Below, one piece after another: positions 399 through 14,744 of a DNA stretch of 27,980 nt (positions within the stretch are counted from its first letter, which is position 1; the number at the start of each line of letters is the position of its first letter). The notes beneath the pieces were generated by a model, which searched no databases, had not been told where the DNA came from, and saw only the letters and a program-made list of their open reading frames with translations. The position numbers were made by a program, and so were the translations under genes. The DNA comes from a bacterium (GTDB lineage Bacteria > UBA9089 > CG2-30-40-21 > SBAY01), in assembly GCA_040757115.1 (NCBI GenBank), contig JBFLYA010000026.1, positions 1 through 27,980 of the forward strand, in the 5' to 3' direction.

Positions 399-3300
399 AT
401 GAAAAAGATGAATAAAACAGAAATAAAACTTGAGCTGAAGGAAAAATGGCAGACTTTTACAGAATGGTATGGATTGGCTGGTAATGCAATCTTTTCAATC
501 ATAGAGGATAGGCAGGGCAACTTATGGTTTGGAACTAATGGAGGGGTAACGATGTATGATGGGAAGGATTGGAAAACTTGGACAACCAGGGATGGATTGG
601 CTAGTGATGCAGTCCGGTCAATCATAGAGGACAGGAAAGGCAATCTATGGTTTGGAACTTGGGAAAAAGGGGTAAGCAGGTATGATGGAAGAAAGTGGAA
701 AACCTTTACAGAAAAGGATGGATTGGCTCATAATTGGGTCACTTCAATCCTAGAGGACAGGCAGGGCAATCTATGGTTTGGAACTGATAGAGGGGTAACG
801 ATGTATGATGGAAGGAAGTGGAAACCCTTTAGGAAAACCTTTACAGAAAAGGATGGATTGGCTAGTAATGCAGTCTGGTCAATCATAGAGGACAGGCAGG
901 GCAACCTATGGTTTGGGACCACTGGAGGGGTAAGTATGTATGATGGGAGGAATTGGAAAACCTGGACAACCAAGGATAGATTGGCTGGTGATAGAATCCT
1001 TTCAATCCTAGAGGACAGGCAAGGCAACCTATGGTTTGGAACTTGGAGAGGAGAGGTAAGGAGGTATGATGGGAAGGATTGGAAAACTTGGACAATCAAG
1101 GATGGATTGCATAGTAATAAAGTCCATTCAATCCTAGAGGACAGGCAGGGCAACCTATGGTTTGGAACTGATAGAGGAGAGGTAAAGAGGTATGATGGAA
1201 GGAATTGGAAAACTTGGACAACCAAGGATAGATTGGCTAGTAATGAAGTCCGGTCAATTATAGAGGACAGACAAGGCAATCTGTGGTTTGGAACTGATAG
1301 AGGGGTAAGTATGTATGACGGAAGGGATTGGAAAACCTGGACAACCAAGAATGGATTGGCTGGTAATATCATAGAGGACAAGCAGGGTAATCTGTGGTTT
1401 GGAACTTGGGGAGGAGGGGTAACGATGTACGATGGAAAGGAGTGGAAAACCTGGACAACCAAGGATGGATTGGCTGGTAATATAGTCCTTTCAATCATAG
1501 AGGACAGAAAGGCTAATCTATGGTTTGGAACTTATGGAGAAGGGGTAAGCAGATACACCCCAACCCATATCCTGGCAAAGGGCTACATGGATGATAACAA
1601 AGGCTTGCTTTATCCGGTTATCTACCAAATATTTGAGGAGGCAAAAGAGCCTTCCTCTTCTCTCAAAGACCTTTGTGAGCTTTACCAGCAGGAAGGCAAT
1701 CAACAATTTGTCAATATCCTTAATGTCTATTACCAACTAAGCTTGTTTACAGAGACCAGCAGAGTAGGTGGAATGATTGCCAGACTAACCCAGAATCCCA
1801 AACCTATTCTATCAAGGCTGGTTGAGATACTTGCAGAGGCTAAAGGGCTTCCTCATGGTGATGAGGTTTATCTTACCTACAAAGTCTTCTATCAGCTTAC
1901 CAATTGCCGGGCAATTGAGGATATTATCATCACCAGGGTTGATCTAAATAAGCTGTTTAAATGTGAAGATGTATTGCGGAAAGGGACAATGAATGCTTTC
2001 AAGGGATTGAATGAGATTATAGAAGCCCTATCTAAGTATGAAGAGGTAGAAGAGGTTGAGGCTAAATCAAGCTATCTTACAGGTTCAATAAGTTTATGTG
2101 AGGAGGCAACAAGGTTTGTTGATAAGGGGGTTTTAGAGCCAGAAAGGACACTTTTGCTCTATCTCCTTCCCCAGATTAGGGAAATCATTGGAAGGGCACT
2201 TAAAGCCCTTACCGGAAGGGCAGAGATTGTATGTGAGCTTAAGACAAAAGAGATGCCATTCAGGGATGAGATAGAGGTAGTCTTAGAGGTTAGGAACATA
2301 GGAAATAGTGTAGCAGATGATATAGATATTGAGATTTTAACCTCTAATGATTATAAGTTTGGGATGACGGGGATAGCTGTATCTCCTATTTCTCCCAGGA
2401 AAGCTAGACAGGTCTCCTTTAGACTTAACCCTCTGAAAAAAGGGCAAATTAGATTGCAATTCAGGATTACCTACAGCGACTTTGAGGCAAAGGGAAAGAC
2501 AATAGATTTTGCTGACCAGATAAGTTTTATTGAAAGGCAGGAGACAGAATTTAGGGAGATTGAAAGTCCTTATATAACTGGTCTTCCTCTTGCTCCCCAG
2601 AGCACGCTTTTCGTTGGTCGAAGTGAAGCGTTTGACTTCATAGAGCGATACTTAAAATCGGTCTCCAAAAAGAATATTTTAGTTCTTACTGGCCAGCGAA
2701 GATTAGGAAAAACCTCTTTGCTTAATCAAGTAATCGTCAAATTTAGCTCTAATTATCTCCCTGTATTAATAGATGTTCAGGGAATAGACAGTGATTCAAC
2801 AGAGGCTAAGTTTCTGCTTACGCTTTCAGAAAAGATTCAAGAGTCAGCAGAAAATCAGGGAATTGAGCTTGAGCTACCCCCAAAAGAAGAATTTTATGAA
2901 AGACCCGCTTCTACCTTTGAGCGATTGTTCCTAAAAAAGGTCTATAAGCTATTGGGAGAAAAACAAATTCTTCTTATGTTTGATGAATTTGAGAGTTTTG
3001 AAAAAAAGGATGGATTGATGAGGGAAGATATATTCGATTATCTTCGCCACTTAATGCAACATACTCAGATTTCCTTTATCTTTACGGGCACCCATCGTTT
3101 AGAAGAAATGACTGGTAATTACTGGAATGTTTTATTTAATATAGGACTTTACCATCAGATTGGGGTTTTGAAAGAAAAAGAGAGTATCTCTTTAATCGTT
3201 AATCCAACAAAACAAGCTATGACATACGATAAGTTAGCTATTGACCGGATACTCAACCTGACTGCAGGACATCCTTACTTTATCCAGCTCATCTGTGATG

Positions 3301-3719
3301 AATTGGTCCATTTGCATAACAGAGAAAGAAAAAGTTATATAACCATTGAAGATGTAAATAATCAACTGGCAGAGATTATTAAATCAGGCTATAATCATTT
3401 TAAATTTATCTGGGATACAACTTCAAATAGAGAAAAGCTCTTACTCTCATTACTTCCCAAACTTCTTCCAATGTGGGAATCAAAAATTACCCTGTCAAAT
3501 ATTATCATTGCTTTAGCCGAAAATAAAATCCAGGCTAAAAAAGAGGATGTTACAGAAACATTAAGAAATCTTATGGCTAAAGAGATTGTCCAGGATATCT
3601 CAATAGATGGCATATCCGGTCATTATCGGTTCAAGGGGGATATTTACCGGGTGTGGTTAGAAAGGTATAAAAAGAGGGCGATAGATGAAGAAAAGATTAC
3701 CTGGGAGGAAAATGATTGA
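399..3719 (+). CDS. Reg_prop beta-propeller / AAA-type P-loop ATPase fusion
   Basis: A cytoplasmic sensor-switch protein of 1106 residues with no signal peptide or membrane segment. Residues about 20-385 hold nine copies of a Reg_prop blade (GNLWFGT...YDG..WKT.T..DGL..N.V.SI.ED). A helical region follows to about 608, then a CARDB/NEW3-like beta domain at about 609-700. An AAA/STAND-like ATPase comes last, with Walker A GQRRLGKTS at 765-773 and Walker B LLMFDEFE (D862-E863). Reg_prop propellers usually sit in the periplasmic part of hybrid two-component sensors, so a cytoplasmic propeller driving an NTPase is unusual; a role as ligand-gated switch is inferred. I chose ATG 399 (AAGAGG at 384-389, 9-nt spacing) over the adjacent TTG at 396. 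The stop overlaps the next ATG as TGATG, which implies translational coupling. Confidence 0.85.
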   Translation: MKKMNKTEIKLELKEKWQTFTEWYGLAGNAIFSIIEDRQGNLWFGTNGGVTMYDGKDWKTWTTRDGLASDAVRSIIEDRKGNLWFGTWEKGVSRYDGRKWKTFTEKDGLAHNWVTSILEDRQGNLWFGTDRGVTMYDGRKWKPFRKTFTEKDGLASNAVWSIIEDRQGNLWFGTTGGVSMYDGRNWKTWTTKDRLAGDRILSILEDRQGNLWFGTWRGEVRRYDGKDWKTWTIKDGLHSNKVHSILEDRQGNLWFGTDRGEVKRYDGRNWKTWTTKDRLASNEVRSIIEDRQGNLWFGTDRGVSMYDGRDWKTWTTKNGLAGNIIEDKQGNLWFGTWGGGVTMYDGKEWKTWTTKDGLAGNIVLSIIEDRKANLWFGTYGEGVSRYTPTHILAKGYMDDNKGLLYPVIYQIFEEAKEPSSSLKDLCELYQQEGNQQFVNILNVYYQLSLFTETSRVGGMIARLTQNPKPILSRLVEILAEAKGLPHGDEVYLTYKVFYQLTNCRAIEDIIITRVDLNKLFKCEDVLRKGTMNAFKGLNEIIEALSKYEEVEEVEAKSSYLTGSISLCEEATRFVDKGVLEPERTLLLYLLPQIREIIGRALKALTGRAEIVCELKTKEMPFRDEIEVVLEVRNIGNSVADDIDIEILTSNDYKFGMTGIAVSPISPRKARQVSFRLNPLKKGQIRLQFRITYSDFEAKGKTIDFADQISFIERQETEFREIESPYITGLPLAPQSTLFVGRSEAFDFIERYLKSVSKKNILVLTGQRRLGKTSLLNQVIVKFSSNYLPVLIDVQGIDSDSTEAKFLLTLSEKIQESAENQGIELELPPKEEFYERPASTFERLFLKKVYKLLGEKQILLMFDEFESFEKKDGLMREDIFDYLRHLMQHTQISFIFTGTHRLEEMTGNYWNVLFNIGLYHQIGVLKEKESISLIVNPTKQAMTYDKLAIDRILNLTAGHPYFIQLICDELVHLHNRERKSYITIEDVNNQLAEIIKSGYNHFKFIWDTTSNREKLLLSLLPKLLPMWESKITLSNIIIALAENKIQAKKEDVTETLRNLMAKEIVQDISIDGISGHYRFKGDIYRVWLERYKKRAIDEEKITWEEND
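453..1556 (+). repeat. nine near-identical propeller blade repeats within the gene
   Basis: The word coding NLWFGT occurs nine times at roughly 111-135-nt intervals, and much of each unit is nearly identical at the DNA level. Blade 7 lacks about five residues between GLAGN and IIED. Blade 3 carries a small internal duplication (KPFRKTFTEKDG). This suggests recent amplification or homogenisation by recombination. Confidence 0.85.
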
Positions 3720-5278
3720 TGGAAGATAAAGAGACCTTAAGATGGTATCTTCAAAGGAAAGACAACAAACTCTATCGTAAATTTGCTTCCATTGTTGATG
3801 ACCTTAAGCCAATTCTTAATAGAGCAAACCAACGCTACTATTCTGACCATGGGGAGGAGCACTGTAAAAATGTAGAGAAGAACTTAGATGAGCTTCTGCC
3901 AAAAAAGATAAAGAATGATATGCCTCCTGAGGAAATATTCTGCCTTCTTCTTTCTATCTGGTTTCATGACATTGGTTTGATTGTTGAAATGAAAGAGGAA
4001 GAACCCTACAAGGAAAGGAGAGCTACTCATTCAGAGAGGACATACAACTATATCCATCAAAATTATGAATACTGGAGATTAGATGAGCCTTATGCTTTTG
4101 CCATAAAAGAGATATGCTATGCCCATTCGGGAAGTATAGAAAAAATGAAAGAGATTAGCCAAAGCCCAATAATTATTGGTCGTTCTTATGTCAGAACTAA
4201 GTTTTTGGCAGGACTTTTGAGAATTGCAGATGAACTTGATATTGGCTTTTGGAAGGTTCCTGCTGAATTACTAAGGCTTTGGAAGGTGCCTGAGCAAGAG
4301 ATGCCTTTTTTATTGAAAGACAGGCTAACCTCAGGAATAAAGATTGACCCTGACCTTTTTGAGATTAGAATTAACTTGCTCCTGAAGGAAAAAGATAGGG
4401 AATTTTCTGATAAGATTGAAGAAATGATAGAGAAAAAGATTAAGAATGAGCTTATCTGCCTTAGGGAGACTCTTAGAGAGAATAACTTAGGCTATAGGGA
4501 TGTAGATATAATTGTAACAAATTTTGGTCTGCCAAAGACTGCTATACCCGAAGAAAAACCATCGCCACCAAAAATCATACCGGAAAATCCCTATATCTCA
4601 GGGGTGCCAATAAGAGAACCAGAGGATTTCTTTGGACGGCAGGAAGAGATAAAAAGGATAATTATGCGTCTAAATAAAGGAGAATCTTCCTCTATTATTG
4701 GCCCGAGAAAAATAGGTAAGACATCCCTTCTTTATCAACTTATCCATCCTTCCAAACTAAAAGAAGAATATGGAGTAAATCCTGAAGAGTATATATTTGC
4801 TTTTATTGATTTGCAGGGGAAAAGAGAATATACAGAGGCAGAGATGGTTAATCTTTTCTCTACACAAATAGGTAGAAAAGAGAACAAAGCCTCCTTTGAA
4901 TCGCTTGCAAAAGGATTGAAAGGGCTTAAAAATAATGGGCAAAAGACAGTCTTTATCCTTGATGAATTTGAGAATATGTGTGAGAATAAGAAAATAACCT
5001 CCAATTTTTATGGGAATTTGCGGTCATTGAATCAGGCATTCTTATGCTCTTATGTAACCACTTCTATGAAATCATTGGCTGATTTGACAGATGATAAAGA
5101 GATAAAAGATTCTCCATTCTTTAATATCTTTGAATCCATCTACTTAGGGGTATTGACGATGGAAGAAGCAAAGGATTTAATAGTTCTTCCTGCAAAAAGA
5201 AGGGAATTGATTTATCTAAATACTCTCAGTTTATTCTGGGTTATACGGGTTATCACCCATTTTTTATTCAAGTTTTAG
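3719..5278 (+). CDS. HD-domain phosphohydrolase / P-loop ATPase fusion, frame broken near the 3' end
   Basis: The N-terminal half shows an HD-superfamily metal site: SDHGEEH (H44, H48), the dyad H83-D84 in WFHDIG, H104, H136 in YAHSG, and D171 in RIADELD. After a linker, an ATPase begins at about residue 290 with NPYISGVPI...FFGR, which resembles the ATPase of the preceding gene. It has Walker A GPRKIGKTS at 328-336 and Walker B FILDEFE (D415-E416). HD enzymes hydrolyse phosphate esters, often nucleotides; the substrate here is unknown. Start: ATG 3719 with GGGAGG at 3703-3708, overlapping the upstream stop by one base. The open frame ends with an atypical tail (VIRVITHFLFKF). The expected continuation GYHPFFIQVLASYIF lies in another frame up to 5325, so a 1-nt shift near 5194-5198 has removed the true C-terminus in this reading. 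Confidence 0.8.
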   Translation: MEDKETLRWYLQRKDNKLYRKFASIVDDLKPILNRANQRYYSDHGEEHCKNVEKNLDELLPKKIKNDMPPEEIFCLLLSIWFHDIGLIVEMKEEEPYKERRATHSERTYNYIHQNYEYWRLDEPYAFAIKEICYAHSGSIEKMKEISQSPIIIGRSYVRTKFLAGLLRIADELDIGFWKVPAELLRLWKVPEQEMPFLLKDRLTSGIKIDPDLFEIRINLLLKEKDREFSDKIEEMIEKKIKNELICLRETLRENNLGYRDVDIIVTNFGLPKTAIPEEKPSPPKIIPENPYISGVPIREPEDFFGRQEEIKRIIMRLNKGESSSIIGPRKIGKTSLLYQLIHPSKLKEEYGVNPEEYIFAFIDLQGKREYTEAEMVNLFSTQIGRKENKASFESLAKGLKGLKNNGQKTVFILDEFENMCENKKITSNFYGNLRSLNQAFLCSYVTTSMKSLADLTDDKEIKDSPFFNIFESIYLGVLTMEEAKDLIVLPAKRRELIYLNTLSLFWVIRVITHFLFKF

Positions 5279-5325
5279 CCTCTTATATATTTGATGAGAG
5301 AATTAAAGGAGAACTAAAGGAGTAA
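5199..5325 (+). other. out-of-frame C-terminal tail of the HD-ATPase
   Basis: Reading from about 5199 in the -1 frame gives GIDLSKYSQFILGYTGYHPF, followed by FIQVLASYIFDERIKGELKE and a TAA at 5323-5325. This matches the ATPase C-terminus of the upstream gene (LTAGHPYFIQLICDEL). Adding one A to the A5 run at 5194-5198 restores one 535-residue protein. The cause may be a real mutation, a slippage site or a base-calling error. The restored stop leaves only 8 nt before the next gene, as expected for an operon. Confidence 0.75.
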
Positions 5326-5333
5326 AAGCTAAA

Positions 5334-8300
5334 GTGGAACTAAAGGATATAAAGAGAAGATTTATGGAAGATATGGTTGGTTTCTTCCGATACGACTGGA
5401 AACACAGGAGTAGTCTTGAGAAGGAGATTATAAGGAGACTTGTGGAAAGCCCAGAGGAAGAAAAACAAAGAATTATTCAACACTATCTGGATAATCATAG
5501 AAAAGCAGTAGATGACCTGGTGCGTGGTGGATACATCATTTACGAAGAAGAAAAATATAAACTGGTGCCGGCTTTTATAGAAGGCGGCCTTGATTGGTCT
5601 GGGTATGATGAGGAAATAGATGAGAGGATATTAAAAGGAGCAGGAACAATTGAGTCACTCCTGAGAAGACGCAATGAGATTGACGAGATAATAAGGAAGG
5701 AATATAAACAGAAAATTACGGTTATGTTCACTGATATTGTTGGCTCAACTGAATATTTTCTCACAAAGGGTGATATTGCCGGAAGGGCAATGGTGCAAAG
5801 GCATAATGATATGCTTTTCCCGATAATTGAGAAACACAATGGTAAGATAATCAAGACAATTGGCGATGCGATTATGGCAGGGTTTGAGAAGGCACAAAAT
5901 GGGGTTCTTGTTGCAATTGAGATGCAGAAAGCTTTAGCAAAATATAACCAAGGGGCAGAGGATAAAATCCAGATTAGAATTGGTATTCACACAGGCTTGG
6001 CAATCACTGAGCCAGATGACATCTATGGCGATACAGTTCATATTGCCGCAAGGATTGAAGCATTGGCAGAAGGTGACCAAATTCTCATTTCTGGAGAAAT
6101 ATTCAAAGAGATTGAGCAAGAAGGGTTTAACCTCCGTTTCCATGGCAAATACCTGCTAAAAGGGCTGATAGAAGATGTGCCAATCTATGAGGTTCTTTGG
6201 GATGAGAGCCAAAAGCCAAGGAAACCTGAGATAAAGGTTAAGCCAGAAAAAGGACAGGTTAAAATGCCTCCCAGCCTGCATAACCAACTTCCACCTGAGC
6301 CAAATTTTGTGGGAAGGGTTGAAATGCTTAAGGCGATCACAGATTGGTACAAATCCCCTGAGGTAAAGATCGGCGCATTAGTTGGCTGGGGTGGGGTGGG
6401 AAAATCGGCATTAGTCAGAAAGTGGTATGATAGCTTAAAAGAAAATAACATCCATCCGGATGGCATATTCTGGTGGGATTTCTATAAGCTCCCTTCCCTT
6501 GACCATTTCATTGCCGCATTATTTGCTTATCTCTCTCAAGATAGATTCAAACTTGATGACTACAAGACATCATGGCAGAAGATAGACAAAATAAAAGAGC
6601 TTCTCCTTGAAAGGGAATATCTCATTATCTTAGATGGACTGGAACAGATGCAAAAATCGCAAACCGGCGAAGAATTTGGTAAGATGCAGCACCCAGAATT
6701 TACCGACTTACTCAAATACATTGCTGATGCAGATTTTAAAGGCTTGTGCCTGATCACTACAAGGTTCCCTTTAACTGACATCAAGAATTACCCAGGCTAT
6801 CAAAAGATTGAGATAGAGGAGTTACCAAAAGAGGATACCTGGCTATTGTTTCAAAGAATTGGTGTAAGAGGAACAGAGGATGAGATAGATGACATCTGGA
6901 AAGAATTTAAGGGCCATACCCTAAGCCTTGTTCTTTTGGCAAATTATTTAGGCCCTGGTGGTGATATTAAAAAAGCAAAGGAAATTCCTCCATTCTATTC
7001 TGACCAGAAGGCAGGGGGTAAGGCACATCGAATCCTTCTTTGGTATGATAAGCAATTAAATGAAGAACAAAGAAGATTTATGAAGATATTCTCCCTGTTT
7101 AGGGGTGCAGTCTCGGAAAGGGAGTTTAAGGAGGTATTCCAAACCAGGGTAGATTTTCATTTCCAGAGAATGCTAAATGACCTTTGCCAGAGAAGGCTCA
7201 TTACCAAAGGTTCTGATAATACCTACACCACCCATCCTTTAATCAAGGGCTACTTTGAGTCTATATTTGATAAAAAAGAAAAGAAGCTAACCCATAAAGC
7301 AATCTATGAATACTTTGGAAAGAAAGCGCCTGATAAGCCTGAAACATTAGACCAGATGCGCCCCCTGTTTGAGCAGGTATATCATGGATGTTCGGCTAGA
7401 CTTTATGATAAGGTGGATGAGGATGTTTATTGGGGGAAAATTCAACGGAGAGAAGAAGGTTTTCTGGTATACAAACTTGGTGTCTGGGAAACCGACCTAT
7501 CCCTTGTCAGAACCTTCTTTCCGGATGGTGATCTTTCAAAGATGCCCCTTGTAAGTGAGAAGAGGGTCCGGGGCTGGTTGCTCAATGAAGCAGGACTGGC
7601 ACTTCTTAATACAGGCCGGCCAAAAGAGGCAGAGGAGCTTTTCGTTCGAAAGACAAATATGCAAATCGAAGACAAAGACCGGAAAAACGCCTCTGCGGGT
7701 TATCAAAACCTGGCTGACCTCTGGTTTCGAGTAGGTAGGCTCAAGGAGGCAAATGAGAGTGCGAAAAAGGCCATTGAGATGGCAGAGAAAGCAGAGTCTG
7801 AGCAGTATATCGTAATTTCAAAAGCCTATCTTGCCTGGATACTTCATCTTGCGGGCAAGGATGAGGAGGCAGAAAAGGAGTTTCAGCAGGCAGATGAACT
7901 TTCAAGAAAGATCAGTGGGTATCAGCTTTATGCTATGCGGGGAATTTTCTATGCTGACTTCCTCCTCTCAATCAAGCAGATTGATGAGGCTTTTGAACTT
8001 ACCAAAGCAAACCTTAAGATCTGCCAGAGGAATAATTTTGTAAACGAGATCTCAAGATGTCACCGCTTACTGGGTGCAATTGAAAGGATAAAGGGGAAGC
8101 AGAAGGAAGCTGAGCCCCATCTTCAGGAGGCCCTTGAGATTGCCAGAAAAGTTGGCATGCCAGAGCTTGAAATCGAAGCCTTGCTTGAGTTGAGCAGGTT
8201 GTGGTTGGATATGAAAAGATATAAAGAGGCTATCTCTCAGGCAAACCAGGTCCTGAAGCTATGTGAAAGAACAGGCTTTTTACTCTACGAACCCGAGGCA

Positions 8301-8453
8301 GAGCTAATCTTAGCCAGGGCATATCTGGGGTTAAATGATCTTGACCAGACCAAAACCTTCGCCCAATCCGCTTACCAAAAAGCCAGCCAGATGCACTACC
8401 ACTGGCCCAGGGTTGAGGCTGAGCAGCTACTGCGAAATCTGAATCCGTGTTGA
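5334..8453 (+). CDS. class III nucleotide cyclase / STAND NTPase / TPR protein
   Basis: A 1039-residue soluble signalling protein. Residues 1-95 look helical or winged-helix-like. A class III cyclase domain spans about 127-290 with both metal aspartates (D134 in FTDIVGST, D178 in IGDAIMAGF), a substrate-side lysine (K174) and R240. The usual transition-state Asn is His236 (YGDTVHIAAR). The STAND/NB-ARC module starts at about 318 (PPEPNFVGR), with Walker A GWGGVGKSA 351-359, Walker B LIILDGLE (D434), an ITTR sensor and GHTLSLVLL. TPR repeats fill about 740-1039. Family knowledge says the cyclase makes cAMP or cGMP and STAND modules oligomerise on signal binding to TPRs; the coupling is inferred. 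The GTG start has GGAG at 5319-5322, 11 nt upstream; the first ATG (5364) is an alternative. It is the third gene of the apparent operon. Confidence 0.85.
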   Translation: MELKDIKRRFMEDMVGFFRYDWKHRSSLEKEIIRRLVESPEEEKQRIIQHYLDNHRKAVDDLVRGGYIIYEEEKYKLVPAFIEGGLDWSGYDEEIDERILKGAGTIESLLRRRNEIDEIIRKEYKQKITVMFTDIVGSTEYFLTKGDIAGRAMVQRHNDMLFPIIEKHNGKIIKTIGDAIMAGFEKAQNGVLVAIEMQKALAKYNQGAEDKIQIRIGIHTGLAITEPDDIYGDTVHIAARIEALAEGDQILISGEIFKEIEQEGFNLRFHGKYLLKGLIEDVPIYEVLWDESQKPRKPEIKVKPEKGQVKMPPSLHNQLPPEPNFVGRVEMLKAITDWYKSPEVKIGALVGWGGVGKSALVRKWYDSLKENNIHPDGIFWWDFYKLPSLDHFIAALFAYLSQDRFKLDDYKTSWQKIDKIKELLLEREYLIILDGLEQMQKSQTGEEFGKMQHPEFTDLLKYIADADFKGLCLITTRFPLTDIKNYPGYQKIEIEELPKEDTWLLFQRIGVRGTEDEIDDIWKEFKGHTLSLVLLANYLGPGGDIKKAKEIPPFYSDQKAGGKAHRILLWYDKQLNEEQRRFMKIFSLFRGAVSEREFKEVFQTRVDFHFQRMLNDLCQRRLITKGSDNTYTTHPLIKGYFESIFDKKEKKLTHKAIYEYFGKKAPDKPETLDQMRPLFEQVYHGCSARLYDKVDEDVYWGKIQRREEGFLVYKLGVWETDLSLVRTFFPDGDLSKMPLVSEKRVRGWLLNEAGLALLNTGRPKEAEELFVRKTNMQIEDKDRKNASAGYQNLADLWFRVGRLKEANESAKKAIEMAEKAESEQYIVISKAYLAWILHLAGKDEEAEKEFQQADELSRKISGYQLYAMRGIFYADFLLSIKQIDEAFELTKANLKICQRNNFVNEISRCHRLLGAIERIKGKQKEAEPHLQEALEIARKVGMPELEIEALLELSRLWLDMKRYKEAISQANQVLKLCERTGFLLYEPEAELILARAYLGLNDLDQTKTFAQSAYQKASQMHYHWPRVEAEQLLRNLNPC

Positions 8454-8479
8454 TTTGTGGGAATAGAAATAGAAAAAGT

Positions 8480-8805
8480 GTAGCCCAACATTCTATGTTG
8501 GCGGATAGAAATGGGGGATGGACAACTCAGGATAGAATCTTGGTATGTGTTTAGCGTGAGGATATTTTTTCCCGACGCTGAAGGCGTCAAACTTCACATA
8601 ACCGTAGATGCAATCTACGGAAGAAACACATACATGCACTCTGCAACCCTGAAAGGGTCGAATTTTATCCCTCGTTTAAAATTCAACCCTTTCAGGGTTG
8701 AGAAACATCGTAGATGTCCATTTCCGTAGGTTTCACCTACGGTTATGTTCAAACCTTTCAGGTTTGTATCCAATGCATAAATACGCTAAACACATACTGG
8801 GCTAC
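8480..8805. repeat. inverted-repeat-bounded array of small hairpins
   Basis: The outer ends are GTAGCCCA (8480) and TGGGCTAC (8798). An inner perfect 15-bp inverted repeat is GTATGTGTTTAGCGT (8543) with ACGCTAAACACATAC (8783). Inside are successive hairpins with mostly 3-nt loops: CCAACAT-tct-ATGTTGG, GACGC-tgaag-GCGTC, CCGTAGAT-gca-ATCTACGG, ACCCT-gaa-AGGGT, CAACCCT-ttc-AGGGTTG, ACATC-gta-GATGT, CCGTAGGT-ttc-ACCTACGG and AAACCT-ttc-AGGTTT. It may be a non-autonomous element or a hot spot for palindromic insertions. Confidence 0.65.
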
Positions 8806-8907
8806 CAAGCTAATGTCAAAATGAGAACCGCTTTATGCCAGCCTATAGCGGTTATTAACTGGAAGTTTACATAGGATAATACCCATAAATAAGGCATGAG
8901 AATAATC

Positions 8908-8985
8908 GTTCCGTTAGGAACATAATATCGGTAGAATAGATAGCTAAATCAATCAGTTCCGTAGGAACGATATATTGGTAGAAAT
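8908..8985 (+). repeat. two direct REP-like units
   Basis: Two hairpins (GTTCC-gtta-GGAAC at 8908-8921 and GTTCC-gta-GGAAC at 8956-8968) are each followed by the same tail, close to ATATATCGGTAGAA. A third unit in opposite orientation lies at 9148-9178. Conserved tail plus hairpin is the layout of repetitive extragenic palindromes mobilised by RAYT transposases. Confidence 0.7.
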
Positions 8986-9108
8986 TATATTAATAATCAG
9001 GAAGAACATCACAAAAAAAAGAGTTTCAGTGAAGAATATAAAGAATTTTTGCGAGCATTTAACATTAATTATGATGAACGATATATTTTTAAACCGATTG
9101 AATTTTAA
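8983..9108 (+). pseudogene. C-terminal remnant of a Y1/RAYT (IS200-like) transposase
   Basis: Translation gives NYINNQEEHHKK, then SFSEEYKEFLRAFNINYDER and YIFKPIEF before a TAA. This matches the recognisable C-terminal block of REP-associated tyrosine transposases (YI..QEEHH, then EEY..FL, then YDERY.F). The HUH motif, the catalytic Tyr region and any start codon are missing. The remnant joins directly to the tail of the second REP unit, so the 5' part was deleted at that repeat. It cannot be functional, but it explains the REP units on both sides. Confidence 0.8.
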
Positions 9109-9147
9109 CTATCTCATGCCTACGGCATTTATGTTTGTATGATATTT

Positions 9148-9178
9148 ATTTCTACCGATATATTGTCCCTATGGGACA
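9148..9178 (-). repeat. REP-like unit in inverted orientation
   Basis: The hairpin TGTCCC-tat-GGGACA (9164-9178) has, on the - strand, the same ATATATCGGTAGAAAT tail as the two units at 8908-8985, but a different paired stem. With them it brackets the transposase remnant in a head-to-head arrangement, as in BIME-type clusters. Confidence 0.7.
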
Positions 9179-9351
9179 TTATTTGTATGATATTTATTTC
9201 TGCTCTAATAGACCAGGGTGAGGAAAAGTTGATAAAGGATTTGTTTGATTCTATGCTCGCAGGCTGGAAAAAGAAAATACTAAATATCCTGAAGAAATTT
9301 GGAGGAGAAAGGATATTAAACATCTTAGAGGAGTAAAATCCATTAAGTGTG

Positions 9352-9402
9352 GAGGGGAAACGCTCATGCCCACAGGAAGTGGGCACAAACGAAGATGAAA
9401 AT
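9352..9402 (+). repeat. structured repeat core, copy 2
   Basis: It keeps GGGGAAACGCTCATG on the left and CACAAACGAAGATGAAAAT on the right. The inner stem is TGCCCAC-aggaa-GTGGGCA (9367-9385), different from copy 1 but still fully paired. The left outer arm ATTTTCA is not preserved. It lies about 130 nt before the STAND-TPR start at 9533. Confidence 0.6.
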
Positions 9403-9532
9403 AAGTAGTAAGCGGATTTAGCGGATTGAGCAGATAAAAAATCCGATTAATCCGCTCAATCCGATTACTAAAAAATAAAAATCTGTGTAATCTGCGAAAT
9501 CTGCGGATTATTTTCAGGGGAAATAGAATACC

Positions 9533-11869
9533 ATGAACTACAGTAAAGCATATCCATATTTAAAGGCCCTTCTGGAGGCATTGATAGAGGTAATAAAGCT
9601 AATACCAGTGGTAGGGAACCCTCTTGCTAAGTTTATCTCATCCTTATTTGAACAACTCAAGGTTTGGGACAAGAAGGAGATTAAACAGTTCGAATCTAGT
9701 CTCCACAATCAGACTCCACCTGAACCAAACTTTGTAGGTAGAATTGAGATGTTAAAGGCGATCACAGATTGGTATGGCTCACCTAAGGTAAAGATAGGCG
9801 CATTAGTCGGCTGGGGTGGTGTAGGGAAATCGGCATTGGTCAGAAAGTGGTTTGATAGCCTGAAAGAAAATAACCTCCATCCGGATGGCATATTCTGGTG
9901 GGGATTCTATCGCAATCCTTATCTTGAGCGTTTCCTTGAGGCATTATTTGTCTATCTTTCCCAGGATAGATTCAAACTTGATGACTACAAGACATCCTGG
10001 CAGAAGACTGATAAAATAAAAGAGCTTCTTTTGGAAAGGGAATATCTCATTATCTTAGATGGCTTGGAGGAGATGCAGAAATCGCAAAGCGGTGAAGAAT
10101 TTGGTAAGCTGCAACACCCAGAATTTACCGACTTACTCAAATCCATTGCTGATGCAGATTTTAGAGGCTTGTGCCTGATAACTACAAGGTTTCCTTTGAC
10201 TGACATCAAGAATTACCCAGGCTATCAAAAGCTTGAGATAGAGGAATTATCCAGAGAGGATACCCGGCTATTGTTTCAAAGGATTGGGGTAAGAGGAACA
10301 GAGGATGAGATAGATGACCTCTGGAAAGAATTTAAAGGCCATACCCTGAGCCTTGTTCTCCTGGCAAATTATTTAGGCCCTGGGGGTGATATTAAGAGAG
10401 CAAAGGAAATACCGCCATTTTATTCAGACCAGGAGGCAGGAGGAAAGGCGCGCAGAATGCTTCTTTGGTATGATAAACAATTAAATGAAGAACAAAGAAG
10501 TTTTATGAAGATATTCTCCCTCTTTAGGGGTGCAGTCTCTGAAAGGGAGTTTAAGGGAGCATTCCAAACCAGGGTGGATTTTCATTTTCAGAGAATGCTA
10601 AATGACCTTTGCCAAAGAAGGCTCATTACCAAAGGCTCTGATAATACCTACACCACCCATCCCTTAATCAAGGGCTACTTTGAGTCTATCTTTGATGAAG
10701 AAGAAAAGAGGCTGACCCATAAGGCAATCTATGAATACTTTGGAAAGATGGCAAAAGATATGCCAGAGACACTGGAAGAAATGCAACCCCTGTTTGAGCA
10801 GGTATATCATGGATGTTCTGCTGAGCTTTATGATGAAGTGCTTTATGATGTTTATTGGGAGAAAATTCAACGGGGACAAAAAGGTTTCCTGGTATACAAA
10901 CTTGGTGCCTGGGAGACTGATTTATCTCTTATAAGAAACTTCTTCCCAGACGAAGACCTTTCAAAGATGCCGCTTGTAAGTGAAAAGAGCAAACAGAGCT
11001 GGCTGCTCAATGAAGCAGGACTGGCACTTCTTTCTACAGGCCGGCCAAAAGAGGCAGAGGAGCCATTTTTGACAGCAGTCCGGATGGGTGTTGAGGCAAA
11101 AGACTGGGAAAACGCCTCTACGGGTTATCAAAACTTGACTGGCCTCCGGTTTCGAGCAGGTAGGCTCAAGGAGGCAAATGAGGGTGCCAAAAAGGCACAT
11201 GATGCAGCAGAGAAGGCAGGGTCTGAGAAGAATATCCGTAATTCAAAAGCCTATCTTGCCTGGATACTTCATCTCTTAGGTAAAGATGAGGAGGCAGAAA
11301 AGGGGTTTCAGCAGGCAGATGAACTTGAAAGAAAGATCAGTGGGTATCGGGATTACAGTATAACTGGAGTTTTCTATGCTGACTTCCTGATCTCAATCAA
11401 GCAGATTGATGAGGCTTTTGAACTTACCAAAGCAAACCTTGAGATCTGCCAGAGTGAAAATTGGCCGGATGATATCTCAAGATGTCACCGCTGCTTAGCT
11501 GCCATTGAAAGGCTAAAGGGAAACCATAAAGAAGCTGAGACCCATCTTCAGCAGGCTTTTGAGATTGCTCGCAGGGTGGGCGTTCCTGATCTTGAAATCG
11601 AAGCCTTGCTTGAGTTGAGCAGGTTGTGGTTGGATATGAAAAGATATAAAGAGGCTATCTCTCAGGCAAACCAAATCCTGAAGCTATGTGAAAGAACAGG
11701 CTTTTTACTCTACGAACCCGATGCAGAGCTAATCTTAGCCAGGGCATATCTGGGGTTAAATGATTTTGACCAGACCAAAACCTTCGCCCAATCCGCTTAC
11801 CAAAAAGCCAGCCAGATGCACTACCACTGGCCCAGGGTTGGGGCTGAGCAGCTACTGCGAAATCTGTAA
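9533..11869 (+). CDS. STAND NTPase / TPR protein with short hydrophobic N-terminus
   Basis: A 778-residue paralogue of the STAND-TPR part of the cyclase gene. STAND starts at about 62 (PPEPNFVGR), with Walker A GWGGVGKSA 93-101, Walker B LIILDGLEE (D176), ITTR and GHTLSLVLL motifs. TPR repeats fill about 480-778. In place of the cyclase there are about 55 residues with a hydrophobic, Gly/Pro-containing stretch (ALIEVIKLIPVVGNPLAKF, about 16-34), which may be a membrane-interacting effector or an adaptor helix. The last roughly 280 nt are almost identical to the cyclase gene while the early TPRs differ clearly, suggesting gene conversion. The TAA stop lies inside a GTAACCGTTCA repeat end, so the original terminus (…NLNPC in the paralogue) seems replaced. 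Start: ATG with AGGGG at 9516-9520, 12 nt upstream. Confidence 0.85.
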   Translation: MNYSKAYPYLKALLEALIEVIKLIPVVGNPLAKFISSLFEQLKVWDKKEIKQFESSLHNQTPPEPNFVGRIEMLKAITDWYGSPKVKIGALVGWGGVGKSALVRKWFDSLKENNLHPDGIFWWGFYRNPYLERFLEALFVYLSQDRFKLDDYKTSWQKTDKIKELLLEREYLIILDGLEEMQKSQSGEEFGKLQHPEFTDLLKSIADADFRGLCLITTRFPLTDIKNYPGYQKLEIEELSREDTRLLFQRIGVRGTEDEIDDLWKEFKGHTLSLVLLANYLGPGGDIKRAKEIPPFYSDQEAGGKARRMLLWYDKQLNEEQRSFMKIFSLFRGAVSEREFKGAFQTRVDFHFQRMLNDLCQRRLITKGSDNTYTTHPLIKGYFESIFDEEEKRLTHKAIYEYFGKMAKDMPETLEEMQPLFEQVYHGCSAELYDEVLYDVYWEKIQRGQKGFLVYKLGAWETDLSLIRNFFPDEDLSKMPLVSEKSKQSWLLNEAGLALLSTGRPKEAEEPFLTAVRMGVEAKDWENASTGYQNLTGLRFRAGRLKEANEGAKKAHDAAEKAGSEKNIRNSKAYLAWILHLLGKDEEAEKGFQQADELERKISGYRDYSITGVFYADFLISIKQIDEAFELTKANLEICQSENWPDDISRCHRCLAAIERLKGNHKEAETHLQQAFEIARRVGVPDLEIEALLELSRLWLDMKRYKEAISQANQILKLCERTGFLLYEPDAELILARAYLGLNDFDQTKTFAQSAYQKASQMHYHWPRVGAEQLLRNL

Positions 11870-12600: not shown

Positions 12601-12638
12601 AAACTTGTAAAGTTAATGAAATAGGAGGAATGATAAAG

Positions 12639-13070
12639 ATGATTAAGAAAATGATAGGTGGAGTAATATGTTTCCTTATTCTTACCCCTCAAGTTTATTC
12701 CGAGGAGGTTTATAAGATAGGAATTGAAGAGCGGCTCATTCGATTAGAAGAAGGACAGAAGGCATTGAATCAGAGATTTGATGATATGAATCAGAGATTT
12801 GATGATATGAATCAGAGATTGAACGATATGATGGGGATAATGCTTAGCGGTTTTGGGGTTTTGTTGGCTGGGATGTTTAGCCTGACTGGTTTTGTCATCT
12901 GGGACCGCAGAACGGCTATTGCCCCTGTGGCTAAGAAAACTCGAAAATTAGAAGAGGAAGAAGAGTTGATAGTAAAAGCTCTTTTAGAGTATGCAAATGT
13001 TGAACCAAAGATGCAAAAAGTACTCACCAGGTTAGGGCTTTATAAAAAGGAATTGCTTATCTCAACCTGA
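12639..13070 (+). CDS. small coiled-coil membrane protein, copy 1
   Basis: About 143 residues, family not recognised. The order is: signal-like N-terminus (MIKKMIGGVICFLIL..PQVYS), a helical stretch IEERLIRLEEGQ, three heptads NQRFDDM / NQRFDDM / NQRLNDM, one membrane helix (IMLSGFGVLLAGMFSLTGFVIW) followed by DRR, and a charged helical tail. F and M recur at 3-4 spacing, typical of a coiled coil. The predicted layout is coiled coil outside and tail in the cytoplasm. I prefer ATG 12639 (AGGAGG at 12623-12628, 10-nt spacing) to ATG 12630, which has only 1 nt. Two near-identical copies follow in tandem; the role is unknown. Confidence 0.75.
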   Translation: MIKKMIGGVICFLILTPQVYSEEVYKIGIEERLIRLEEGQKALNQRFDDMNQRFDDMNQRLNDMMGIMLSGFGVLLAGMFSLTGFVIWDRRTAIAPVAKKTRKLEEEEELIVKALLEYANVEPKMQKVLTRLGLYKKELLIST

Positions 13071-13406
13071 ACTTAGGTAAATAAACGGGTAACTATTCCC
13101 CACGAAGGGCACGGAGAGCACGAAGTGAAATTTGATGAATTATCGAATTCATGAAGCTCAAATATTAACATATATGGTAATACGTCAGTTATTTGGGGAA
13201 ATGAACATTAACCTGCGGAGGACAAAGCAATGAAAATAGTAGGCAAGTAGGTAGTAGGTAAGTAGGAAAGGGATAAAGGATGTGCACGGTATTCCTCTTC
13301 TGGGGGCAATGTCTCCCCCTTTCCTACTCTCCTACTTCCTACTTTCAGGAGAATCCCCCATTTCACTGACTCATTACCTTACAGGTCGAAAATATTTAAA
13401 ATTTGA
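13071..13406. other. intergenic spacer with palindromic element
   Basis: It begins with the end of the duplicated unit and a variant terminus GTAACTATTCC at 13088. A palindrome follows with arms GTAGGAAAGGG (about 13262) and CCCTTTCCTAC (about 13316), bounded by ATGAAAATAG (13228) and CTTTCAGGAGA (about 13344). The same bounding text occurs around the structured cores. No gene is visible. Confidence 0.55.
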
Positions 13407-13435
13407 TTGACAGAAATCAGAAACTGTGATAAAAT
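13407..13435 (+). promoter_or_regulatory. sigma70-type promoter of coiled-coil gene 2
   Basis: TTGACA (13407-13412), 17 nt, TAAAAT (13430-13435). Compared with copies 1 and 3 the -10 box has A instead of G at its third base. Confidence 0.75.
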
Positions 13436-13473
13436 AAAATTGTAAAGTTAATGAAATAGGAGGAATGATAAAG

Positions 13474-13926
13474 ATGATTAAGAAAATGATAGGTGGAGTA
13501 ATATGTTTCCTTATTTTTACCCCTCAAGTTTATTCCGAGGAGGTTTATAAGATAGGGATTGAAGAACGGCTCATTCGATTAGAAGAAGGACAGAAGACAC
13601 TGAATCAAAGATTGGATGATATAAATCAGAGATTTAATGATATGAATCAGAGATTTGATGATATGAATCAGAGATTGAACGATATGATGGGGATAATGCT
13701 TAGCGGTTTTGGGGTTTTGTTGGCTGGGATGTTTAGCCTGACTGGTTTTGTCATCTGGGACCGCAGAACGGCTATTGCCCCTGTGGCTAAGAAAACTCGA
13801 AAATTAGAAGAGGAAGAAGAGTTGATAGTAAAAGCTCTTTTAGAGTATGCAAATGTTGAACCAAAGATGCAAAAAGTACTCACCAGGTTAGGGCTTTATA
13901 AAAGGGAATTGCTTATCTCAACCTGA
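13474..13926 (+). CDS. small coiled-coil membrane protein, copy 2
   Basis: About 150 residues, nearly identical to the copy at 12639 but with four heptads (NQRLDDI, NQRFNDM, NQRFDDM, NQRLNDM). Each heptad is a 21-nt unit. Signal-like N-terminus, membrane helix and charged tail are unchanged (tail RREL instead of KKEL). The start was chosen as for copy 1: AGGAGG lies 10 nt before ATG 13474 and 1 nt before ATG 13465. The copies differ almost only in repeat number, so coiled-coil length appears to be the variable property. Confidence 0.75.
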   Translation: MIKKMIGGVICFLIFTPQVYSEEVYKIGIEERLIRLEEGQKTLNQRLDDINQRFNDMNQRFDDMNQRLNDMMGIMLSGFGVLLAGMFSLTGFVIWDRRTAIAPVAKKTRKLEEEEELIVKALLEYANVEPKMQKVLTRLGLYKRELLIST

Positions 13927-13945
13927 ACTTAGGTAAATAAACGGG

Positions 13946-14182
13946 GTAACCGTTCAGGCTATATATCAAAAGTGTAAGAAAGGGGATAAGGAGATAAGAG
14001 TGATATGGAGATAAGATAATAGAAATAGATTGAAATTTATAGAAATAGGTAGAAATTGATTGTGGAAAACAACAAATTTCCATAAATTTCTATTAGTTTC
14101 TATTAATTTCAATTTTTTTAATAATATCTCCCTATCTCCTTAATCTCCACATCTCCTTTTGTTACACCACCTGAACGCTTAC
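13946..14182. repeat. 237-bp palindromic element with GTAACCGTTCA ends
   Basis: The ends are GTAACCGTTCAGG (13946) and CCTGAACGCTTAC (to 14182). The arms are GATAAGGAGATAAG-like text on the left and CTCCCTATCTCCTTAATC on the right, with a second inner pair (AAATAGATTGAAATTTATAG with CTATTAATTTCAA-type text). There is no coding potential. It separates coiled-coil copies 2 and 3 and ends 9 nt before the copy 3 promoter, covering most of the gap between the genes. Confidence 0.65.
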
Positions 14183-14191
14183 AAAATTTGA

Positions 14192-14220
14192 TTGACAGAA
14201 ATCAGAAACTGTGATAGAAT
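14192..14220 (+). promoter_or_regulatory. sigma70-type promoter of coiled-coil gene 3
   Basis: TTGACA (14192-14197), 17 nt, TAGAAT (14215-14220), identical to the promoter of copy 1. Confidence 0.75.
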
Positions 14221-14258
14221 AAAATTGTAAAGTTAATGAAATAGGAGGAATGATAAAG

Positions 14259-14744
14259 ATGATTAAGAAAATGATAGGTGGAGTAATATGTTTCCTTATT
14301 CTTACCCCTCAAGTTTATTCCGAGGAGGTTTATAAGATAGGGATTGAAGAACGGCTCATTCGATTAGAAGAAGGACAGAAGACACTGAATCAGAGATTGG
14401 ATGATATAAATCAGAGATTTAATGATATGAATCAGAGATTTGATGATATGAATCAGAAATTTAATCAGAGATTTGATGATATGAATCAGAGATTGAACGA
14501 TATGATGGGGATAATGCTTAGCGGTTTTGGGGTTTTGTTGGCTGGGATGTTTAGCTTGACTGGTTTTGTCATCTGGGACCGCAGAACGGCTATTGCCCCT
14601 GTGGCTAAGAAAACTCGAAAATTAGAAGAGGAAGAAGAGTTGATAGTAAAAGCTCTTTTAGAGTATGCAAATGTTGAACCAAAGATGCAAAAAGTACTCA
14701 CCAGGTTAGGGCTTTATAAAAAGGAATTGCTTATCTCAACCTGA
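14259..14744 (+). CDS. small coiled-coil membrane protein, copy 3
   Basis: About 161 residues, the longest of the three. Heptads: NQRLDDI, NQRFNDM, NQRFDDM, a partial NQKF, NQRFDDM, NQRLNDM. The 12-nt partial unit keeps the reading frame but shifts the heptad register by four residues, which should introduce a stutter in the coiled coil. Membrane helix and tail match the other copies. ATG 14259 was preferred over 14250 for the same ribosome-site spacing reason. Confidence 0.75.
   Translation: MIKKMIGGVICFLILTPQVYSEEVYKIGIEERLIRLEEGQKTLNQRLDDINQRFNDMNQRFDDMNQKFNQRFDDMNQRLNDMMGIMLSGFGVLLAGMFSLTGFVIWDRRTAIAPVAKKTRKLEEEEELIVKALLEYANVEPKMQKVLTRLGLYKKELLIST

What the first reader, a model, noticed from the sequence alone, without database searches (positions are those of the whole stretch)
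399..8453. Three-gene operon: propeller-ATPase, HD-ATPase, cyclase-STAND-TPR
The sequence shows three genes with 1-nt overlap and 8-nt (restored) spacing. The first two share a related P-loop ATPase introduced by the same NPYI.G.P motif. The third couples a class III cyclase to a STAND switch. Sensor, possible nucleotide synthase and possible phosphohydrolase in one transcript suggest a self-contained second-messenger or conflict (defence) system. No known system with exactly this trio comes to my mind. No nuclease, protease or pore effector is evident, so signalling remains an equal possibility.
Basis: partly seen in the sequence, partly recalled or inferred. Interest (0 to 1): 0.78.

Follow-up and report, generated by a model that had tools for sequence, protein, structure and literature searches.

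The report
Paired STAND operon, second gene broken
What looked like a new three-gene signalling operon is a two-gene, immune-receptor-like ATPase operon whose second gene is broken into pieces; its last part is a module that bacteria and archaea combine with many different "weapon" domains (nuclease, protease, TIR, cyclase).

Summary
The DNA is as described: a propeller-ATPase (399-3719), an HD-ATPase (3719-, frame broken near 5200) and a cyclase-STAND-TPR reading frame (5334-8453), with a 1-nt overlap between the first two. The count of three genes is wrong. The first ~80 residues of "gene 3" are the missing C-terminal lid and winged helix of gene 2's nSTAND2 ATPase. A profile of that tail, built without the window, finds gene 3 at E = 5e-12; every other window frame scores at most 7.4 bits. 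Homologues elsewhere cross the junction in one open frame. So there are two ancestral genes: propeller-ATPase, and HD-CE–nSTAND2–class III cyclase–NB-ARC–TPR, the latter broken twice within ~140 nt.

The pair recurs: at six other loci in five genomes a gene-1-type ATPase adjoins an nSTAND2 partner carrying TIR, protein kinase, CHAT or no added domain. This resembles the published two-gene nSTAND2 conflict operon, but both ATPases here look active and the effectors differ.

The NB-ARC–TPR part is a multicopy cassette (80-85% protein identity between copies) whose N-terminal slot holds HNH, TIR, CHAT, trypsin, DUF4062 or cyclase. Best reading: an NLR-like conflict system, here probably decaying. 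New variant of a known kind; function untested.

The parts
399..3719 (+). Gene 1: Reg_prop beta-propeller (9 blade motifs, mean DNA identity 82% among the eight blades compared) + helical and CARDB-like linker + STAND/AAA ATPase (ATPase_2 match at ~2610-3284) with winged-helix tail; 'U-type' partner
   Evidence: Pfam; blades; closest to the sensor-side partner of six other ATPase pairs (E 1e-52 to 1e-19)
3719..5278 (+). Gene 2 reading frame as it stands: HD-CE domain + N-terminal part of nSTAND2; the last ~27 codons are read out of frame
3836..4393 (+). HD-CE domain with a full set of putative metal ligands: HG..H, HD (H83 D84), H104, H136, D171
   Evidence: Pfam; alignments
4622..5209 (+). 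nSTAND2 ATPase core, intact Walker A (GPRKIGKT) and Walker B (VFILDEF)
   Evidence: Pfam
5195..5210 (+). First frame break in gene 2; coding continues in another frame to TAA 5323-5325
   Evidence: nSTAND2 rises from 63.5 to 90.7 bits when read through
5311..5347 (+). Second frame break: 11-nt direct repeat GAACTAAAGGA at 5311 and 5337, 26 nt apart (not a multiple of 3), spanning the apparent gene 2/gene 3 boundary
   Evidence: sequence
5337..5573 (+). C-terminal lid / winged helix of nSTAND2, inside the N-terminus of 'gene 3'
   Evidence: profile of homologous tails without the window: E 5.3e-12 here, best of 5000 shuffles 10.6 bits vs 38.9
5334..8453 (+). 'Gene 3' reading frame: nSTAND2 tail, class III cyclase, NB-ARC STAND, TPR
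5697..6164 (+). Class III adenylyl cyclase domain: two metal Asp, adenine Lys and Asp and transition-state Arg present; transition-state Asn is His
   Evidence: Pfam; alignment to the active enzyme Ma1120; PMC4215837
6273..8453 (+). Mobile NB-ARC-TPR cassette starting at SLHNQ; ~87% DNA identity to three other copies, ending abruptly at its 5' edge
9533..11869 (+). Second copy of the NB-ARC-TPR cassette (edge at 9698) with a different, helical N-terminus (MNYSKAYPYLKALL); intact

Best explanation
The locus is a two-gene, NLR-like STAND conflict operon whose second gene is broken. Gene 1 is the sensor-side ATPase: a propeller made of near-identical blades on a STAND ATPase. The second gene was HD-CE-nSTAND2-class III cyclase-NB-ARC-TPR, about 1575 codons, and now lies in three frames. 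Shown by sequence: the domain content, the origin of gene 3's N-terminus in nSTAND2, the recurrence of the ATPase pair, and the use of the same NB-ARC-TPR cassette with many N-terminal effectors. Inferred: the propeller and/or the TPR detects an invader or its damage; the two related ATPases co-assemble with ATP; assembly switches on the enzymes carried by the second protein, the HD phosphohydrolase (nucleotide or nucleotide-signal breakdown) and the adenylyl cyclase (cAMP made as an alarm signal or at the cost of ATP), which stops or kills the infected cell. In this assembly the second gene cannot make one full-length protein, so the system is probably decaying, unless the breaks are assembly errors.
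For: Gene 3 N-terminus is the nSTAND2 tail: Pfam nSTAND2 goes from 63.5 bits (profile 15-201) in gene 2 alone to 90.7 bits (15-267) when read through into gene 3; homologues in G013, G016, G116, G123, G259, G283, own contig C81 and gene 1 cover the junction in one open frame; tail profile without the window E 5.3e-12. Pairing: six loci in five genomes have a U-type ATPase next to an nSTAND2 ATPase; each U gene is best matched by window gene 1, and the nSTAND2 query matches the N gene best or, at L170 and L171, about equally to the U gene. U partners carry GAF, TPR or membrane/CARDB-like regions; N partners carry TIR, protein kinase or CHAT. TIR and kinase sit C-terminal to nSTAND2, where the window has the cyclase. 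Cassette with exchangeable N-termini; abrupt DNA-level edge at SLHNQ. TPR evolves faster (dN/dS 0.41-0.56) than NB-ARC (0.07-0.13) between paralogues. Catalytic residues present in HD and cyclase.
Against: No defence activity is shown anywhere for these genes. No phage or plasmid defence context surrounds the window: downstream are ABC transporter, ClpB-like and LutB-like genes. In the sister family of the order the closest gene-1 relatives sit next to CheW, with no nSTAND2 partner visible in the stretch read, and nSTAND2 proteins in own C81 and G016 lie beside an ATPase-histidine kinase gene, which favours ordinary signalling for some relatives. The Asn-to-His change in the cyclase leaves activity uncertain. 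A shared transcript is not shown. dS is also lower in the TPR part, so the dN/dS contrast is only suggestive.
Confidence: 0.6

Rival explanations
1. Three separately translated genes; gene 3 starts at GTG 5334 with translational coupling and its N-terminal helix bundle is a separate domain that only resembles the nSTAND2 tail.
For: GTG 5334 follows an AAAGGAG at 5316-5322; the gene 3 frame is open for 1039 codons.
Against: The gene 3 N-terminus matches the nSTAND2 tail at E 5e-12, and gene 2's nSTAND2 lacks exactly that tail. In homologues the tail is in the same protein as the P-loop. In G003:C31 the related cyclase protein begins right at the cyclase (MPVPIEELLRKRNEIDE), without this tail.
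Confidence: 0.12
2. A cellular signalling device (stress or surface sensing through cAMP), not a defence system: STAND ATPases and class III cyclases are common signalling parts.
For: Gene-1 relatives next to CheW in genus g3; nSTAND2 beside histidine kinases and REC-cyclase genes in C81 and G016:C195; cyclase active-site residues mostly kept.
Against: Other partners of nSTAND2 are TIR, CHAT or protein kinase, and the NB-ARC-TPR cassette carries HNH, TIR, CHAT and trypsin. Patchy distribution, many broken copies and swapped N-termini are typical of conflict genes.
Confidence: 0.28
3. The breaks are assembly or sequencing errors and the organism has one intact HD-CE-nSTAND2-cyclase-NB-ARC-TPR gene.
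For: Draft assembly of 462 contigs; both breaks lie within ~140 nt; the direct repeat at 5311/5337 could be misassembled.
Against: Other copies of the cassette are also split (C120; G001:C167; G003:C281; G016:C57; L117), which fits real decay; no reads could be inspected. This rival does not change the two-gene reading, only whether the gene is alive.
Confidence: 0.3
4. Programmed frameshifting joins the frames.
For: The first break lies at an A-rich stretch (GCAAAAAGAAGGG) with a shift to the -1 frame.
Against: The stretch is not a canonical slippery heptamer; a second shift would be needed within ~140 nt, after a stop codon.
Confidence: 0.03

Closest known systems
Two-gene nSTAND2 operon, a predicted counter-invader system (Kaur et al. 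2021, eLife, PMC8195603, Fig. 6C)
   Same: Two adjacent genes, each with a related STAND ATPase core and variable fused domains; gene 2 matches Pfam nSTAND2
   Different: Published: NTP-binding motifs of one partner eroded, effector most often GT4 or HEPN on that inactive partner. Here both ATPases have intact Walker motifs, gene 1 does not pass Pfam nSTAND2, and the second gene carries HD-CE, a cyclase and a whole NB-ARC-TPR cassette
NLR-like STAND proteins with swappable N-terminal effectors (AP-ATPase/NB-ARC + TPR; conflict systems of Kaur et al. 2020, PMC7159879)
   Same: NB-ARC + TPR with HNH, TIR, CHAT, trypsin or cNMP cyclase at the N-terminus
   Different: In the window the cyclase is not N-terminal but follows another STAND module, giving two STAND switches in one ancestral reading frame
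Class III adenylyl cyclase Ma1120 (PDB 4wp3, 4wp8, 4wp9)
   Same: Closest solved cyclase (E ~1e-21); same metal Asp, adenine Lys/Asp, Arg; both lack the transition-state Asn
   Different: His instead of Ala at that position; embedded in a STAND protein
Pycsar (PycC cyclase + membrane or TIR effector)
   Same: Weak cyclase-domain similarity (PADLOC PycC E 1e-7)
   Different: No cNMP-sensing effector gene adjacent; different architecture

Membership tests
Two-gene nSTAND2 operon (PMC8195603) | Two adjacent genes whose constant cores are related STAND ATPases | tested here: met
   1-nt overlap of genes 1 and 2; ATPases related; same U/N pairing at six loci in five other genomes
Two-gene nSTAND2 operon (PMC8195603) | Both cores belong to the nSTAND2 family | tested here: inconclusive
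   Gene 2 yes (63.5 bits, 90.7 read through); gene 1 not listed by Pfam nSTAND2 at E 0.01, though related to it
Two-gene nSTAND2 operon (PMC8195603) | NTP-binding motifs of one partner eroded | tested here: not met
   Walker A and B intact in both window genes and in the six other U/N pairs
Two-gene nSTAND2 operon (PMC8195603) | Effector most often GT4 or HEPN on the inactive partner | tested here: not met
   HD-CE, cyclase and NB-ARC-TPR here; TIR, kinase, CHAT at other loci
NLR-like NB-ARC-TPR with exchangeable N-terminal effector | NB-ARC P-loop ATPase followed by TPR | tested here: met
   Pfam; GWGGVGKS, LIILDGLE conserved
NLR-like NB-ARC-TPR with exchangeable N-terminal effector | Different effector domains on one conserved core | tested here: met
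   HNH, cyclase, trypsin, CHAT, TIR, DUF4062 on one cassette; edge at SLHNQ
NLR-like NB-ARC-TPR with exchangeable N-terminal effector | Immune or cell-death activity | not testable with these tools
   No experiment available
Class III nucleotide cyclase | Catalytic residues: two metal Asp, Lys/Asp for adenine, Asn/Arg pair | tested here: met
   All but Asn (His here); the active enzyme Ma1120 has Ala there
HD phosphohydrolase | H...HD...D metal ligands | tested here: met
   H48, H83-D84, H104, H136, D171 conserved with distant relatives; substrate not determined; Foldseek only weak hits to GppA and HD-GYP
Pycsar | Adjacent cNMP-sensing effector gene | tested here: not met
   No such gene in the window

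The most novel reading that the evidence does not exclude
Two stacked STAND switches in one polypeptide: a propeller/nSTAND2 ATPase pair that, when triggered, controls both an HD phosphohydrolase and a cyclase already under its own NB-ARC-TPR receptor, so that signal synthesis and breakdown are gated by two receptors. It arose by joining a mobile cyclase-NB-ARC-TPR unit to an HD-CE-nSTAND2 gene.
Probability: 0.2. Interest if true: 0.65.

Novelty: new variant of a known kind. Interest (0 to 1): 0.45.

Why it matters
It replaces an apparent new trio by a simpler and testable statement: a paired-ATPase operon, with both partners apparently active, that recurs across distant genomes and carries exchangeable effectors. 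The four copies of one NB-ARC-TPR cassette in a single genome (HNH, cyclase, two helical N-termini) give a clear case of recent effector exchange at a fixed hinge, and the same cassette in ANME-1 archaea shows exchange between domains of life. If confirmed, the set offers natural variants for asking whether one receptor part works with any effector.

Tried and rejected
Three-gene operon: rejected by the nSTAND2 tail in gene 3. Conserved trio elsewhere: none seen in the phylum (19 genomes held) or in the 290 relatives searched. The HD-CE orthologues across the order (HD-CE-nSTAND1-HEAT, ~1150 aa) have lost several HD ligands and are a different, vertically kept family. Pycsar: no adjacent effector. 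Single-protein scans of genome contigs with gene 2 and of viral contigs with gene 3, and a plasmid tblastn with the read-through protein, found nothing. HD-CE structure model (pLDDT 66) gave no Foldseek hit below E 0.001; the best were GppA and HD-GYP, so the substrate stays open. A paper search for the name HD-CE found nothing relevant. Programmed frameshift: no canonical site, and two shifts would be needed.

Full report
Observation. The reading frames and domains are as described: gene 1 399-3719 (Reg_prop propeller + ATPase), gene 2 from 3719 (HD-CE + nSTAND2) and a frame 5334-8453 (class III cyclase + NB-ARC + TPR). Genes 1 and 2 overlap by one base (TGATG).

The third gene is not a separate ancestral gene. 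Gene 2 alone matches Pfam nSTAND2 at 63.5 bits over profile positions 15-201. Read through both breaks, the match is 90.7 bits over 15-267 and extends into the gene 3 residues. With the read-through protein as query, homologues in G013, G016, G116, G123, G259, G283, contig C81 of the same genome and window gene 1 cover the junction in one open frame without stops. Aligned, they show the same helix-turn pattern (…FRYDWKHRSSLEKEIIRRL… against …FEYIWQHLDNAEKKVLIKL…). A profile of these tails built without the window finds gene 3 at E 5.3e-12 (38.9 bits, window ~5337-5573); the next best of 99 window frames scores 7.4 bits and the best of 5000 shuffles of gene 3's first 120 residues 10.6 bits. In G003:C31 a cyclase 67% identical to gene 3's over residues 105-311 starts its protein exactly at the cyclase, without this tail. 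The second break coincides with an 11-nt direct repeat, GAACTAAAGGA at 5311 and 5337, 26 nt apart; a small duplication is a plausible cause (inference).

The pair recurs. Among the nSTAND2 relatives, six loci in five genomes (G063, G254, G259 twice, G123, G078) have a neighbouring gene whose ATPase is of the gene 1 type. Gene 1's ATPase finds these partners at E 2e-52 to 2e-19, against 3e-9 for gene 2. In a tree of the ATPase domains gene 1 falls among these partners; support values are modest. Gene-1-type proteins carry GAF, TPR or membrane and CARDB-like regions (one, in G254, has the ATPase alone); nSTAND2 partners carry TIR (G063), protein kinase (G123) or CHAT (G078), or nothing recognised. 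TIR and kinase follow the nSTAND2 tail, the position the cyclase has in the window. Gene order is reversed at two of the six loci (G078, G259:C83). A two-gene operon with nSTAND2 in both proteins has been described as a predicted counter-invader system (PMC8195603); there one partner's NTP-binding motifs are eroded, whereas here both partners have intact Walker motifs. I therefore call it a relative, not a member. In other relatives nSTAND2 sits beside an ATPase-histidine kinase (C81, G016:C195), and gene-1 relatives in genus g3 stand next to CheW without an nSTAND2 partner in the stretch read, so signalling uses exist.

The NB-ARC-TPR part is a mobile cassette. The same genome holds three more copies: window 9533-11869, contig C53 and contig C120, 80-85% identical in protein and ~87% in DNA, with similarity stopping at the SLHNQ codons (window 6273 and 9698). 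Their N-termini differ: cyclase (window), HNH nuclease (C53; Pfam HNH 36 bits), two related helical N-termini (9533, C120). In other genomes the same cassette carries cyclase, HNH, trypsin-like protease, CHAT, TIR, DUF4062 and a short IYQAGRDI-type segment; hosts include ANME-1/Methanophagales archaea, UBA9088 and Stahlbacteria. The CHAT, TIR and one trypsin case are distant relatives of the cassette (23-34% identity), and the DUF4062 case keeps only the start of it. In L115 a small neighbouring frame has a similar segment and a hydrophobic C-terminus, as in amyloid-signalling pairs (inference; not tested). Between three paralogues the TPR region has dN/dS 0.41-0.56 and the NB-ARC region 0.07-0.13; dS is also lower in the TPR, so this is a hint only.

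Enzymes. The cyclase keeps the metal-binding Asp pair, the adenine Lys and Asp and the transition-state Arg, and has His for Asn. Ma1120, the closest solved relative, has Ala there and is an active adenylyl cyclase (PMC4215837). HD-CE keeps the HD-superfamily ligands, unlike the order-wide HD-CE-nSTAND1-HEAT family, which has lost some. HD-CE is also found with NB-ARC-TPR (G137), nSTAND5-TPR (G016), STAND-TPR (C65), C-terminal to NACHT-HEAT (C53) and, on a viral contig, with a phosphoribosyltransferase-like domain. The fold model is of moderate quality and gives only weak matches to GppA and HD-GYP, so the substrate is unknown.

Mechanism (inference). Detection by the propeller and/or TPR, ATP-driven co-assembly of the two related STAND ATPases, and release of the HD phosphohydrolase and adenylyl cyclase activities to stop the cell. 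As assembled, the second gene cannot yield the full protein. Either it is decaying, as several other cassette copies are (C120, G001:C167, G003:C281, G016:C57, L117), or the draft assembly is wrong here. Reads were not available.

Verdict. It is a new variant of a known kind (paired STAND operon plus NLR-like cassette), of moderate interest.

Noticed in passing
L029 (contig C53) 15183-19949 and L086 (G014:C45) 3295-7571: The same three-gene order in two genomes: RelA/SpoT-like synthetase (Pfam RelA_SpoT 31 bits in C53), an ATPase of ~445 aa and an AAA-TPR protein (with near-identical TPRs in C53); possibly a ppGpp-type conflict operon.
   Followed up: partly
L029 5064-8747: NACHT-HEAT-HD-CE protein (1227 aa) with HD-CE at the C-terminus and an N-terminal 'IEVIQAGRDVHIH' segment like that of the archaeal cassettes.
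   Followed up: partly
L163 (contig C65) 4476-10609: HD-CE-STAND-TPR protein of 1710 aa followed by a subtilase gene (Pfam Peptidase_S8 90 bits).
   Followed up: partly
L115 2772-5643 and 6210-7120 (Methanophagales): Small frame with 'EQHAGRDIFNIARDLNI' and a hydrophobic C-terminus just before a cassette protein with 'RDIYQAGRDVVIK', then a second cassette with a trypsin-like N-terminus; looks like an archaeal amyloid-signalling NLR pair.
   Followed up: no
window 9201-9360: 97.5% identical to the 3' end of a nucleotidyltransferase-like gene that precedes the cassette on contig C120 (L031 1633-2310): a remnant suggesting that the cassette was duplicated with neighbouring DNA.
   Followed up: partly
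window 12630-14744: Three tandem, nearly identical genes for a small secreted/coiled-coil/TM-like protein (MIKMIKKMIGGVICFL...), differing in the number of 7-residue repeats.
   Followed up: no
L032 (contig C81) 1628-12212 and L107 (G016:C195) 3880-9421: nSTAND2 protein (RapZ-like or propeller N-terminus) next to an ATPase-GAF-histidine kinase; in C81 followed by response regulators including a REC-cyclase.
   Followed up: partly
L113, L121 record titles: Contigs labelled Nitrospira and Marinifilum have the same lengths and genes as contigs of G003 and G006, genomes of this phylum, so the labels are probably wrong.
   Followed up: no
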